DNA of 64,000 nucleotides from positions 2,592,001 to 2,656,000 of the forward strand of contig NZ_AP022842.1 in the NCBI RefSeq assembly GCF_011398925.1, read 5' to 3'. This DNA is from Bacillus sp. KH172YL63. GTDB taxonomy: Bacteria; Bacillota; Bacilli; Bacillales; Bacillaceae_B. Positions within the stretch are counted from its first letter, which is position 1. Each line of letters begins with the position of its first letter. The position numbers and the translations under genes are program-made. Below are positions 6,388 through 56,857 of the stretch, one piece after another. Under the pieces are notes generated by a model, which was given only the letters and a program-made list of their open reading frames with translations, ran no database searches and was not told the origin of the DNA.

Positions 6388-8277
6388 TCGAGTAGGAGGG
6401 GATGATTAATCCCCGACCTCTCACACCACCGTACGTACCGATCGGTATACGGCGGTTCAATCAAGATGGTTGACGAAGACTTTCATACCTACCGATAAGA
6501 CTTAGGAGCCCTTGGCGATTCCAAAAGGAATTGCCAAGGGTTCTGTGTAGTATTGGACTTTGTGCGACCCTCCAATATCCCCTTCCGGGTATTTCCCCAT
6601 TCATATGCCTTCCATTTTGGAACGCCGAGCGCAATGAGGTTACGGACTTTAGTTTTCGGCAGTTTCCACTGCTTCCACAGACACATTCGCAATCTTCTTC
6701 TGATCCATGCATCCAGGTATTTTAGGAAGCTGTGTGTATCAGCCAGCTGAAAATAGCCGATCCATCCCATTAAATATTGGTTCAGCTTTCTGATTCGTCC
6801 CTCCATCGACCATCCTGAAGATCTGGAAGTTAGATAACGGATTTTCTGTTTCAACCGTTTTATACTTTGGGAGGCAACTCTGACTTTTGGTTTACGATTC
6901 GATGTAAAACTAAAGCCAAGGAACGTTCTTCTCCAAGGTCGGTCCACCGCAGATTTCTTTCGGTTTACCTTCAGTTTAAGTTTCTTCTCAAGAAACGTTG
7001 TCACTGAAGTCATCACCCGGTTACCGGCTTTTGGCGAACGGACAAAGATATTACAATCATCTGCGTACCTTATAAAACGTAGCCCCCGTTTCTCTAATTC
7101 CTGGTCCAGCTCATTCAAAATGATGTTAGAAAGCAATGGACTGAGAGGTCCGCCCTGTGGCGTACCTTCCTCGCTTTTCACCTTTACACCTTCTATCATA
7201 ATTCCTGCATTGAGGTAAGAACGAATCAGTTTCAGAAGTGCTTTGTCCTTTACTTTCTTCGCCAGAAGACCCATGAGCTTATCATGATTCACTCTGTCAA
7301 AGAATTTCTCTAAATCTATATCGATAACCCAGCGATATCCTTCCCGGATATACATCTTCGCTTTTCTAACGGCGTCATGGGCACTCCGATTTGGTCGGAA
7401 CCCATAACTATGATCAGAGAAGGTCGGCTCGTATATCCCGGAGAGTATCTGGGCAATTGATTGTTGAATCATACGGTCTGTCACCGTTGGGATGCCTAAC
7501 AACCGGACGCCGCCGTCTGGTTTCGGGATTTCGATTCGACGTACCGGGTCCGGCTTGTAGGTTCCCCCAAGGAGATTCTTGCGAATCGACTGCCATTCGC
7601 GCATGATATGCGATCGCAGGTTTTGTACGGGCATATCATCCACGCCATGGCTTCCCTTATTACGTTCTACACGTTTCAGTGCTTCAAGCATATTCGGTTT
7701 AGACAGAATCATATTCATCAACATCACTGATATTCCTTTCCTTCGTGTGTCACGTTTCCTCTTTCGATGGCCCTGCCTCACACTTCCACCAGCCCTCACG
7801 GAATTCACCGTTACCTCTAAATGGACAGCTCTTTTCAGATTGTCTGTGAGTCTCTCAGTTACCATGAGCCAGGTCGTGACACTCTCTTGATTGTTCAGTC
7901 CTTCCCGGCTTCCTCGAGAAAAGCCGGTACTATGACCTCGGCTGACTTCTGGCGGTTCAGCGGAGAATCGCTTCTCCGGTTACCAAGTGTTCAAGGCGTA
8001 TCCGCCAGATCTCCCCGGGTAAGAGTGTAATCTTTCCCTCCATCTATCCGCCTCATTTACTTTCTGCACCTTCGACAGTTCGGACTTCATCTTGTATTGC
8101 AGACTCATCCAGTGCAACAAGCCTTATATGAGATTCGTGTTCCCCGGACCGGAGGTTTGCCGCCCGCTTCCTTCAGATTCCAGGTCACCCCGGACACCCT
8201 TGCGTTAAGCTAACCGCTACAACTGTCTTCACGGCTCGGGACTCTCACCCTATAGATTACACCCATGCCGGGCGCAC
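6387..8277 (-). mobile_element. Group IIC (bacterial class C) self-splicing intron
   Basis: Read on the minus strand, the element opens with GTGCGCCCGG at 8277 (group II 5' consensus GUGYG). It has about 550 bases of ribozyme sequence before the reverse-transcriptase gene, and ends with a domain V-like hairpin (about 6424-6465, gaaccgccg...cggtggtg) and a domain VI hairpin (about 6396-6420, ggggattaatcatcccc). It terminates as ...ctactcgat at 6387 or 6388. The 5' exon is the hairpin at 8281-8321 followed by tttcgtt. Insertion just 3' of a terminator stem is the hallmark of class C introns. Removing the element restores the ponA stop codon followed within a few bases by that hairpin. Boundaries are exact to about one base at the 3' end. 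Confidence 0.9.
6489..7724 (-). CDS. ltrA: Group II intron reverse transcriptase/maturase (LtrA family)
   Basis: This intron-encoded protein supports splicing and retrohoming. The 411-residue form starts at ATG 7724 (MLMNMILSKPNM), behind aaggaaagg. The frame stays open to 7865, so a longer form of 458 residues is possible, but that extra part lies in ribozyme sequence. The reverse-transcriptase domain shows RLLGIPTVTDRMIQQ, DIDLEKFFDRVNHD, TPQGGPLSPLLSNI and the catalytic RYADD. The maturase (X) domain follows with LNQYLMGWIGYF. There is no C-terminal HNH endonuclease, as expected for class C. All key residues are present, so the protein looks functional. Confidence 0.95.
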   Translation of the reverse strand: MLMNMILSKPNMLEALKRVERNKGSHGVDDMPVQNLRSHIMREWQSIRKNLLGGTYKPDPVRRIEIPKPDGGVRLLGIPTVTDRMIQQSIAQILSGIYEPTFSDHSYGFRPNRSAHDAVRKAKMYIREGYRWVIDIDLEKFFDRVNHDKLMGLLAKKVKDKALLKLIRSYLNAGIMIEGVKVKSEEGTPQGGPLSPLLSNIILNELDQELEKRGLRFIRYADDCNIFVRSPKAGNRVMTSVTTFLEKKLKLKVNRKKSAVDRPWRRTFLGFSFTSNRKPKVRVASQSIKRLKQKIRYLTSRSSGWSMEGRIRKLNQYLMGWIGYFQLADTHSFLKYLDAWIRRRLRMCLWKQWKLPKTKVRNLIALGVPKWKAYEWGNTRKGILEGRTKSNTTQNPWQFLLESPRAPKSYR

Positions 8278-20177: not shown

Positions 20178-20388
20178 AGTATCCTCCTTCTTTTCAGTCA
20201 GAGGTGACGAAAAACAATGAAAGCACTTTCATATTTAGAACAAAAAAACCTCCTGAAAAATGACAGAAGGATCATAAGTGTAAGATATCATTGTTTCGAC
20301 CCTCTGTCCCAGTCCACAATGGATCAAGGCAGAAATTGTATTTATAGCATTTGTTTGACGCAGGGTGCAGTTCCAAGGATACTGCCCA
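20178..20388 (-). promoter_or_regulatory. Structured 5' leader of panBCD with terminator/antiterminator (candidate pan RNA motif)
   Basis: On the minus strand the arms ccttctg (20270-20264) and caggagg (20255-20249) form a hairpin followed by seven T (20248-20242), an intrinsic terminator about 65 bases ahead of panB. Upstream, gacagaggg (20308-20300) can pair over 9 bp with ccttctgtc and would then block the terminator stem. A further hairpin gcagt...actgc lies near the start of the leader. The published pan motif RNA occurs upstream of panB in Firmicutes, including B. subtilis; I could not check its two conserved bulged adenosines here. The ligand, if any, is unknown. Confidence 0.6.
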
Positions 20389-55271: not shown

Positions 55272-55394
55272 ATGGGCAAAGATCGCCAAGAGAAGAAATT
55301 AAAACAAAGTAAAAGAGTGGAATCAGACCGAGATCAAGGCTTGCATTTTAACGGGGCAACAAGTCTTGAAGCGAAAAAAGGTACGACAAAATAA
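55272..55394 (+). CDS. ypzI: YpzI family small protein
   Basis: This 40-residue protein, MGKDRQEKKLKQSKRVESDR..., is highly charged and hydrophobic-poor. The ATG at 55272 follows gggaggtg by seven bases. The sequence GKDRQEKKLK...RVESDRDQ is the hallmark of YpzI, a small Bacillus protein of unknown role. It is divergent from seaA. Confidence 0.85.
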   Translation: MGKDRQEKKLKQSKRVESDRDQGLHFNGATSLEAKKGTTK

Positions 55395-55437
55395 AAGGCT
55401 GTTCGTAAACATTGTGGCTTTTAAAAAAGTCAGATGC

Positions 55438-55564
55438 GGTTGATTTCCGCTCCAGATGCTCGCTTTCCGCGGGGCTGGCGGTGAGCCTCCTCGGACTTCG
55501 TCCTGCGGGTCTCACCTGTCCAGCGGTTCCCGCAGGAGTCGAGCATCTTCCGCTCCAATCAACC
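55438..55564. repeat. 127-bp GC-rich palindromic intergenic repeat
   Basis: The outer arms ggttgatt and aatcaacc pair. The next nine bases on each side carry the same motif tccgctcc, so they do not pair and form a symmetric internal loop. Then gatgctcg pairs with cgagcatc. Inside are further complementary blocks: gcgggg-type with cccgc, ctgg with ccag, ggtgag with ctcacc, and cggac with gtcctg, ending in an apical ttc loop. The block is clearly richer in GC than its flanks. I recognise closely similar sequences between genes in many Bacillaceae genomes. It is the only copy in this window. Confidence 0.8.
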
Positions 55565-55756
55565 ATCGAAGATAAAAACCGGAAATTCAATGAATTAACT
55601 GCTTATTCATTTTTTGAAGAGTAGTGATTTACGTCAATGAAGCACATTGCCCTTGATTCATTGCTATGGGAATTTTTTCATCCCATAGTCTCTAATTTCC
55701 GAAGGTGCTCACATGTTCGTCTAATAATAGAAACAATCAATGCGAAAAGAGCCAAA

Positions 55757-55803
55757 TAAAAAGAGAGCGGGCTTCCAATTATGGAAACCCGCTCTCTTTT
55801 TTA
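55757..55803 (-). terminator. Rho-independent terminator of fni
   Basis: Stem aaaagagagcggg...cccgctctctttt with inner ttcc/ggaa pairing directly follows the fni stop and is flanked by A and T runs on both sides. Confidence 0.85.
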
Positions 55804-55804
55804 T

Positions 55805-56857
55805 TCATTCTTTTCTTTTACTGTATTGATCAGGATACATACCTCTGACCTTAAGCCAGTGGTACACCCCGCCTGACAGGATGAGTGGTACATACTGGAG
55901 GTCCTCGATCCTTGAACAGCCGAGCGCACACATCAGGAACCTGATGTCCCCATGAATGCTGTTCACTTCCTGGATTGTCTCTTCAAGACCTTTTTCTACC
56001 AGGTTCCTAAGAATTACCCCCGCCATTCCTGCAGCAGATGCCCCCAGACTTAAAGACTTTACAATGTCCAGGCTGTTTTGAATACCGCCTGAAGCGAGCA
56101 CCGGTTTCGTGGAGGCTGTTCGGCATTCTGCAATGGATACCGCCGTCGGAATTCCCCACCCGTCAAAAAAGTCCAACATCCGGTCTCTGCGTTTATTTTC
56201 AATTTTGGAGAAATTCGTTCCTCCAAAGCCGCCTACATCAATGGCTGAAATTGAAGTATCCTCCAAATCGGCTGCAGTTTCCCGGCTGATTCCGAAGCCT
56301 GTTTCTTTCACAATGACAGGAACAGATAGGTCCTCTGCTATCAGGCCGATCCTTTCAATCGCACCCTTGAAATCCCGATCTCCCTCTGGCATCGTCAGTT
56401 CCTGTATGACATTCAGATGGATCTGTAAAGCATCGGCTTCAAGCATCTCCACAGCATCTCGTGCTTGTTGAACGGTGGCCTCGCTCCCTAAGTTGCCGAG
56501 TATGACTCCGTCAGGGTTACATCTCCGCATGATTTGATACGTTTCCCGTTCAGCAGCTTCTTTCAAAGCCGACATCTGAGATCCTGACGCAATGGCCATT
56601 CCGGTTTCACGTGCAAGGATCGACAGCTCTTCATTGATCTTTAAAGTGGAATCTCCACCGCCACCTGTCATAGCGTTGATAAAAATTGGCGAACTTAAGG
56701 TAAGTTCGCCAATTCTCGTGGATAGATGAACATCATCTACCGCTATATTCGGTAAGCTTTGGTGGACAAAAGCCACTTCATCAAATCCAGTTAGCCGCTG
56801 CTGACCTGTTGATAAAGCATAATTAATATGATCTTGCTTTCTTTGAGCTCTTGTCAC
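55805..56857 (-). CDS. fni: Isopentenyl-diphosphate delta-isomerase type 2
   Basis: Fni is an FMN-dependent IPP/DMAPP isomerase. The 350-residue product has INAMTGGGGDSTLKINEEL, ASGSQMSALK, LHLNVIQELTMPEGDRDF-like substrate residues, VKETGFGISRETAADL and GGFGGTNFSKIEN, and ASGGIQNSLDIVKSLSLGASAAGMAG near the flavin phosphate site. The start is GTG 56857. It is 12 bases downstream of the S1-domain gene. Confidence 0.96.
   Translation of the reverse strand: MTRAQRKQDHINYALSTGQQRLTGFDEVAFVHQSLPNIAVDDVHLSTRIGELTLSSPIFINAMTGGGGDSTLKINEELSILARETGMAIASGSQMSALKEAAERETYQIMRRCNPDGVILGNLGSEATVQQARDAVEMLEADALQIHLNVIQELTMPEGDRDFKGAIERIGLIAEDLSVPVIVKETGFGISRETAADLEDTSISAIDVGGFGGTNFSKIENKRRDRMLDFFDGWGIPTAVSIAECRTASTKPVLASGGIQNSLDIVKSLSLGASAAGMAGVILRNLVEKGLEETIQEVNSIHGDIRFLMCALGCSRIEDLQYVPLILSGGVYHWLKVRGMYPDQYSKRKE

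What the first reader, a model, noticed from the sequence alone, without database searches (positions are those of the whole stretch)
55438..55564. 127-bp palindromic element with a conserved symmetric internal loop
The sequence shows nested complementary arms interrupted by a block that carries the same motif, tccgctcc, on both sides and so cannot pair. This looks like selection for a defined structure and not only for palindromy. The block is GC-rich against AT-richer flanks, and open reading frames run across it on both strands, which can mislead annotation. I recognise very similar sequences in intergenic regions of many Bacillaceae, but know of no assigned function. Options are a non-autonomous mobile palindrome (REP/MITE-like), a protein-binding site, or a structured RNA.
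Basis: partly seen in the sequence, partly recalled or inferred. Interest (0 to 1): 0.72.

Follow-up and report, generated by a model that had tools for sequence, protein, structure and literature searches.

The report
Hairpin core of a mobile element
The 127-base palindrome is the folded heart of a 357-base "hitchhiker" transposon parked in a gene's stop signal, and the same heart recurs inside small transposons with different ends in many families of Bacillus-type bacteria, where it seems to be kept as a DNA hairpin rather than as an RNA.

Summary
The palindrome at 55438-55564 is real but is not the mobile unit. It is the core of a 357-bp non-autonomous transposon (MITE), 55397-55753, with imperfect inverted ends, a perfect 8-bp duplication (AAATAAAA), and a position in the T-tract of an intrinsic terminator. 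The genome holds 80 core places and 109 such ends; one pair of ends frames an IS1595-family transposase gene, the candidate mover. A relative lacks the insert.
The core recurs in 36/36 genus genomes and 102/398 sampled genomes of the class (21 families; some matches weak), in at least three shells with different ends. Cross-family cores show massive compensatory change (42/47 pairs; 41/47 unfitted), while the TCC/TCC loops mostly stay unpaired. Among changed pairs, G-T and A-C are equally rare, which points to folded DNA rather than RNA; three fixed T-G pairs were left out of that test. Within this genome cores diverge about a quarter as much as the rest of the shell; at three orthologous sites in relatives they do not consistently do so.
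Shown: ends, duplications, empty sites, target preference, covariation. Inferred: trans-mobilisation; a DNA hairpin as the selected form. Its partner is unknown.

The parts
55389..55396 (.). left target-site duplication AAATAAAA
   Evidence: identical 8 bp on both sides
55397..55753 (+). whole 357-bp MITE, shell A
   Evidence: alignment of 30 copies with flanks, ends and duplication, empty orthologous site in relative G021
55397..55419 (+). left terminal inverted repeat, two T short of the consensus GGCTGTTTTCGTAAACATTGTGGCT
55438..55564 (+). palindromic core (127 bp here, 128 bp as a rule)
   Evidence: covariation
55446..55453 (+). left half of the symmetric internal loop: TCC-GC-TCC, middle pair covarying
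55549..55556 (+). right half of the symmetric internal loop: TCC-GC-TCC
55565..55728 (+). AT-rich right arm of the shell, fast-diverging
   Evidence: 9.7% mean divergence from consensus against 2.6% for the core (29 copies)
55729..55753 (-). right terminal inverted repeat GGCTCTTTTCGCATTGATTGTTTCT
55754..55761 (.). right target-site duplication AAATAAAA
55762..55803 (.). intrinsic terminator (hairpin with A/T tracts) into whose T-tract the element went; limits by eye
   Evidence: sequence; terminator test -32.2 kcal/mol beside the right end of this copy (L001)
55805..56857 (-). gene that ends at the terminator: 350-aa FMN-dehydrogenase/IMPDH-like protein; isopentenyl-diphosphate isomerase type 2 by my reading (recalled)
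   Evidence: Pfam
55272..55394 (+). YpzI-like small gene on the other side
   Evidence: PF14140, E 1.6e-22

Best explanation
The block is the hairpin core of a 357-bp MITE with IS1595-type ends. An IS1595-family transposase acting in trans (the genome keeps one candidate 1.5-kb autonomous copy with similar ends) cuts at the terminal repeats and inserts the element with an 8-bp duplication, preferentially in the T-tracts of intrinsic terminators, where it should do little harm. The core is a module that is not tied to this shell: the same core is carried by MITEs with different ends across the class. Its arms drift but stay Watson-Crick complementary, and TCC/TCC loops, bulges and three T-G positions are mostly kept imperfect. 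So what is kept is an imperfect DNA hairpin or cruciform, most likely a structure that a replication, repair or transposition protein meets on single-stranded DNA and that helps an element carrying it to spread or persist. Shown: ends, duplications, copies, empty sites, target preference, covariation, balance of G-T and A-C among varying pairs. Inferred: trans-mobilisation, and folded DNA as the functional form. Unknown: the protein partner.
For: 109 end sequences in this genome, 0 for the reversed control; 29 of 40 copies have both ends within 5 of 25 mismatches, 24 of those 29 with at least 6/8 duplication (the window copy is outside the 29 because of its 2-T gap, but has 8/8). IS1595 gene between matching ends with duplication AAATAGAA. 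Site empty in G021. Terminator abutting the right end in 14/29 and the left in 5/29 copies, against 0-3/29 at displaced points. Core in 36/36 genus genomes and 102/398 of the class, inside shell A, shell B (GGCT[GC]TGTTAAA; 8/8 duplications in L087, L129, L139, L150, L158) and shell F (AGGCTGGGACA ends). Covariation: 42/47 pairs, 405 cells against 76 +/- 8.5 shuffled and 22-76 slid; unfitted alignment 41/47, 378 against 40-78 slid. Loop middle paired in 74/84 (permuted mean 55, max 63); outer 3x3 without a standard pair in 70/84, inner likewise 70/84. G-U 41, A-C 47 against 3404 Watson-Crick.
Against: No transposition was observed for shell A, and the IS1595 element's ends differ at some bases. 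Shells A and B might be one family with drifted ends. The G-U/A-C test leaves out three pairs that are T-G on the top strand in 68-74 of 84 rows; counted in, G-U would far exceed A-C. Arm complementarity could also be kept by template-switch mutation. At orthologous shell-F sites the core is not consistently slower: core/shell/flank identity 0.90/0.78/0.87, 0.97/0.95/0.97, 0.73/0.71/0.90, 0.64/0.78/0.91 in four comparisons at three sites. In 14 f32 loci none keeps the exact TTCCGCTCC on either arm (best 1 mismatch in L403, L405, otherwise 2-4) although the core model still matches. In 3 of 27 relatives (L246, L248, L256) a core-like match lies between the two flanks of the window locus, so that intergenic region was hit more than once or earlier.
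Confidence: 0.7

Rival explanations
1. The core has no function: it is a neutral palindrome whose arms are kept alike by template switching and copy-to-copy gene conversion, riding in MITEs.
For: Cores in this genome are 95-96% alike pairwise while shell parts are 76-90%; identities of core and shell do not correlate (though no two parts do); a shared complex variant occurs on either arm (GCAGCGAG left in L021, L036, right in L035); at three orthologous shell-F sites the core is not consistently slower than the shell.
Against: Template switching should erase the TCC/TCC loops, bulges and T-G positions, yet these persist in most of 84 cores.
Confidence: 0.25
2. Structured RNA made from the element (riboregulator, stabiliser or sRNA).
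For: Strong fold on both strands, z -6.6 and -7.5; extensive covariation; three fixed T-G pairs would be G-U wobbles in a top-strand RNA; orientation bias relative to neighbouring genes.
Against: Among the other pairs G-U is 41 and A-C 47 of 3627 cells (15 of the 41 at the outermost pair); 56 and 60 unfitted. 21 tRNAs of the same loci give G-U 27 of 445 (ARAGORN may not draw A-C). No Rfam match at gathering scores. A terminator precedes the element in many copies.
Confidence: 0.13
3. REPIN-like element mobilised by a RAYT tyrosine transposase acting on single-stranded hairpins.
For: Three RAYT-like genes in this genome (one of three over the NCBIfam cut-off); in the class sample RAYT (E<=1e-13) and core co-occur: 33 both, 17 RAYT only, 69 core only, 279 neither, p 1e-10 (not corrected for kinship).
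Against: No core within 1.5 kb of the three genes by motif or by the covariance model; target duplications and TIRs; 69 of 102 core genomes lack a strong RAYT; within the own order 12/21 against 5/17, p 0.11.
Confidence: 0.1
4. The core is or strengthens a transcription terminator, so that elements dropped into terminators stay harmless.
For: Insertion next to terminators; shell F elements replace a terminator-like stem-loop and bring one of their own.
Against: The core has no T-tract of its own (sequence); shell F carries a separate ordinary terminator-like hairpin besides the core.
Confidence: 0.12

Closest known systems
MITEs of IS1595-family insertion sequences
   Same: TIRs shared with an IS1595-type element in the same genome, 8-bp AT-rich duplications, no transposase gene
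   Different: Carries a conserved GC-rich hairpin core that also occurs inside MITEs with other ends; preference for terminator T-tracts
EFAR palindromic repeats of enterococci (De Gregorio et al. 2009; named in passages of PMC3733652; details recalled, paper not seen)
   Same: As I recall, EFAR elements are modular palindromes that replace most of a target stem-loop; shell F here does that
   Different: I had no EFAR sequence to compare; shell A inserts beside a terminator with a duplication instead
BOX/RUP/SPRITE repeats of pneumococcus (PMC3049150, passages seen)
   Same: Structured repeats described as parasitic non-autonomous elements, BOX modular; SPRITE enriched near 3' ends of genes
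   Different: Reported mainly from pneumococcus and near relatives, BOX-type also from S. suis; here one core spans 21 sampled families in different shells
REP/REPIN with RAYT (PMC3733652, passages; otherwise recalled)
   Same: Imperfect palindromes, many copies; hairpin as the key (recalled)
   Different: 127 bp instead of 20-40 bp, no RAYT next to it, TIRs and target duplications
bcr1 of the Bacillus cereus group (named in PMC3733652, passages)
   Same: Short mobile repeat in Bacillaceae
   Different: Specific to one species group by the cited title; sequence not compared

Membership tests
MITE | terminal inverted repeats | tested here: met
   29 of 40 copies with both ends at no more than 5 of 25 mismatches
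MITE | target-site duplication | tested here: met
   10 of 29 perfect, 24 of 29 at least 6/8; window copy perfect
MITE | empty sites in relatives | tested here: met
   G021 for the window locus; four shell-F loci present or absent among G011-G013
MITE | no transposase gene inside | tested here: met
   only 70- and 80-aa frames overlap the element, at a 60-aa minimum
IS1595-derived MITE | ends shared with an IS1595-family element | tested here: met
   L217 501-2021, PF12762 E 4.6e-16 and NF033547 E 1.5e-60; both ends within 2 mismatches of the pattern
IS1595-derived MITE | moved by that transposase | not testable with these tools
   needs a trans assay
ISL3-derived MITE (first guess) | ISL3 element with the same ends | tested here: not met
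   no PF01610 in this genome, 6 of 36 in the genus; copies L201, L202, L207 have other ends
REPIN/RAYT | RAYT gene flanked by the repeat | tested here: not met
   3 loci of 3.3 kb, no core by motif or by model at E<=1
REPIN/RAYT | insertion without target duplication (criterion recalled) | tested here: not met
   duplications present
structured RNA family | match to a described family | tested here: not met
   Rfam gathering scan of the window: 3 hits, none here
structured RNA family | G-U pairs commoner than A-C on one strand | tested here: inconclusive
   varying pairs: 41 against 47, 56 against 60 unfitted; but three fixed T-G pairs were left out
EFAR | sequence homology | not tested
   no EFAR sequence at hand

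The most novel reading that the evidence does not exclude
The core is a self-standing selfish DNA structure, an imperfect single-strand hairpin read by one dedicated or host enzyme throughout the class, which has colonised several unrelated MITE families (a parasite of parasites) and is refreshed among copies by conversion, so that it stays pristine while its carriers decay.
Probability: 0.25. Interest if true: 0.85.

Novelty: new variant of a known kind. Interest (0 to 1): 0.62.

Why it matters
A quarter of the sampled genomes of the class carry this block, and reading frames across it can be called as genes (2 of 14 plasmid matches lie under a "hypothetical protein"). If one DNA hairpin is shared by transposons with different ends, then something other than the transposase selects internal structure in MITEs. 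That makes a testable case for a common host factor or a second layer of mobility, and an example for telling DNA-level from RNA-level covariation.

Tried and rejected
ISL3 origin, my first guess from the ends and the 8-bp duplication: rejected. RAYT/REPIN: adjacency fails and co-occurrence is loose. Structured RNA: see the G-U/A-C balance and its caveat. Separate histories of core and shell by correlation: uninformative, because no two parts of the element correlate. A further shell in family f19 (ends GTCAATTTCATAATTA) is clear in only 2 of 14 copies (L359, L360), so I do not count it; a GACTGTAGACA-type shell is only suggestive. Phages: no match; plasmids: 14 records, at most 38% of the element covered, mostly the core. 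Literature: ten searches showed me no paper naming this element; I saw listings of all and passages of three papers (PMC3733652, PMC3049150, PMC2614493). A search for four stretches of its sequence gave 0 papers. Subscription journals are mostly not held.

Caveats of sampling: the 40 copies were the best by core similarity, which flatters the core; 46 of 80 places score at least 134 bits. The genus and class counts are matches on either strand and capped. Alignment A4 (84 matches from 79 chosen sources) is fitted to the model, hence the unfitted repeat. In one search I dropped L093, L104 and L109, 51 of 53 rows passed. RAYT presence at E<=1e-13 is my cut; weaker hits (97 of 147 genomes with a match) I took for IS200/IS605 relatives. 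Empty-site limits are by eye.

Full report
OBSERVATION. The palindrome at 55438-55564 is present as described and folds far better than shuffled sequence (z -4.7, 0 of 200). The repeated block TTCCGCTCC sits on both arms. Its middle two bases pair with each other across the stem; the TCC triplets on either side face TCC. This copy is one G short of the usual 128-bp core.

THE REAL UNIT. Aligning 30 copies with their flanks showed similarity running beyond the palindrome on both sides to a pair of inverted ends. In the window the element is 55397-55753, 357 bp, flanked by AAATAAAA on both sides. Of 40 copies examined, 29 have both ends with no more than 5 of 25 mismatches; their duplications match 8/8 in 10, 7/8 in 8, 6/8 in 6, fewer in 5. 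The window copy is not among the 29, because two T are missing from its left end. A search for the end pattern gave 109 sites in the genome and none for the reversed control. At the orthologous site of G021, the relative with the best match, the element is missing and the two flanks lie about 33 bp apart. In 3 of the 27 relatives' loci (L246, L248, L256) a core-like match does lie between the flanks, so this intergenic region was hit more than once or earlier.

THE LIKELY MOVER. Orphan pairs of ends led to a 1521-bp element (L217 501-2021; genome 2354276-2355796) with the duplication AAATAGAA and a 286-aa protein of the IS1595 family (PF12762, E 4.6e-16; NF033547, E 1.5e-60). A second pair of ends, 813 bp apart, encloses a 140-aa ORF without Pfam match, with duplication ATTTCAAA. 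That this transposase moves the MITE is inferred from the shared ends. An ISL3 origin was tested and dropped.

WHERE IT LANDS. The window copy sits in the T-tract of the terminator of a 350-aa FMN-dehydrogenase-like gene. Among 29 copies a terminator (my test, -8 kcal/mol or better) abuts the right end in 14 and the left end in 5; at points displaced by 60-400 bp the count is 0-3 of 29. Over all 40 it is 15 and 7. In ORF-based context of 40 copies (ORFs of at least 100 aa, not curated genes) both neighbours point leftward relative to the core in 19, rightward in 8, mixed in 11, undetermined in 2.

THE CORE IS WIDER THAN THE SHELL. The covariance model finds the core in 36 of 36 genomes of the genus, 14-92 matches each, capped, at 80 distinct places in this genome, and in 102 of 398 genomes sampled from the class, 35 of 146 genera, 21 families by my count of the rows, some only weakly. 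That the class is Bacilli is my inference from the named records. Elsewhere the core lies between other ends: GGCT[GC]TGTTAAA, mostly 179-190 bp with 8-bp duplications, and AGGCTGGGACA.../...TGTCCCAGCCT. In G011-G013 (G013 against G011 96.3%, against G012 91.3% in aligned DNA) four loci of the last kind are present in some and absent in others, a difference of about 265-300 bp. At all four the empty site reads, by eye, as a terminator-like stem-loop (imperfect in one) whose hairpin the insertion replaced.

STRUCTURE UNDER CONSTRAINT. In 84 cores, 42 of 47 pairs changed on both sides, 405 cells against 76 +/- 8.5 in shuffles and 22-76 with partners slid. On an unfitted MAFFT alignment it is 41 of 47 and 378 cells against 40-78 slid. 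The middle dinucleotide of the loop is GC/GC in 42, GT/AC in 23, AC/GT in 9, other in 10; 74 of 84 pair, against a mean of 55 and a maximum of 63 in 10,000 permutations. The outer 3x3 flank has no standard pair in 70 of 84, the inner in 70 of 84. So the loop is kept unpaired while its centre is kept paired.

DNA OR RNA. Leaving out three pairs that are T-G in 68-74 of 84 rows, counted cells are 3404 Watson-Crick, 41 G-U (15 of them at the outermost pair), 47 A-C, 135 other. An RNA from the top strand should show G-U well above A-C, one from the bottom strand the reverse. Twenty-one tRNAs from the same loci have 27 G-U in 445 pairs (that program may not draw A-C). Equal rarity among varying pairs fits a DNA hairpin or cruciform. 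The three fixed T-G pairs cut the other way: in a top-strand RNA they would be ordinary wobbles. There is no Rfam match at gathering scores.

RATES. In 29 copies mean divergence from consensus is 2.6% for the core, 5.2% and 8.4% for the ends, 9.7-9.9% for the rest of the shell; the choice of copies by core similarity flatters the core. Duplication copies differ at 13-17% of sites, implying about 7-8% neutral change per copy. So the core in this genome stays young. Selection before or after insertion, or conversion between copies, could do this. Orthologous shell-F sites in relatives do not settle it: core/shell/flank identity 0.90/0.78/0.87 and 0.97/0.95/0.97 at two sites, and 0.73/0.71/0.90 and 0.64/0.78/0.91 at a decayed third.

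FUNCTION. My commitment: an imperfect DNA hairpin recognised, as single strand or cruciform, by a replication, repair or transposition protein, which aids spread of any carrier. This is inference. RAYT enzymes are the obvious candidates and the genome has three RAYT-like genes, but no core lies within 1.5 kb of them, and although core and RAYT co-occur in the class sample (33/17/69/279), 69 of 102 core genomes lack a strong RAYT. Exceptions count too: none of the 14 printed f32 loci keeps the exact loop motif on either arm.

NOVELTY. MITEs, IS1595 elements, repeats at terminators and modular palindromes are known kinds. A single structure-constrained core in MITEs with different ends across 21 sampled families is not described in anything the ten listed searches showed me. 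I file it as a new variant of a known kind.

Noticed in passing
L222-L226, L229 (own genome, of 17 regions fetched); L112: A second palindrome (GAAAAGCGGAGGCGGCT...) is nested inside the core; in L222, L224, L225, L226 and L229 the printed junction is the same or one base different (after GGACAGT)..
   Followed up: partly
L220 490-2560; L219 1900-3830: An element with DUF772 and DDE_Tnp_1_6 proteins (IS1182-type by my reading) sits in the apical loop of a core with GACTTCGTC on both sides; a DDE_Tnp_1 element sits at GGTGAGACCC of another. Cores are landing sites for other elements.
   Followed up: partly
L218 501-1313: 813-bp element with the same ends and an 8-bp duplication carries a 140-aa ORF, lipoprotein-like by eye: possible passenger capture.
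   Followed up: no
L219 501-610, L221 501-610: Two 110-bp elements keep both ends and only the outer left arm of the core, possibly by recombination between GATGCTC repeats.
   Followed up: partly
L324, L325, L326: Three solitary RAYT-like genes (NF047646, 75.7-82.4 bits, cut-off 80) in this genome, with no core beside them.
   Followed up: partly
window 7898-8194 (-): Group II intron pieces (Rfam D1D4-1 and D1D4-3).
   Followed up: no
window 20300-20388 (-): pan motif (Rfam RF01749).
   Followed up: no
L116 (JAGGRA010000054.1): Core on a contig labelled Pseudomonas sp. ISL-84: possibly a mislabelled or contaminated Bacillus-type assembly.
   Followed up: no
G000, 46 places of at least 134 bits: Core strand is minus 18, plus 5 in the first half of the contig and plus 15, minus 8 in the second, as expected if orientation follows gene direction and the origin lies at the contig start (not tested).
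   Followed up: partly
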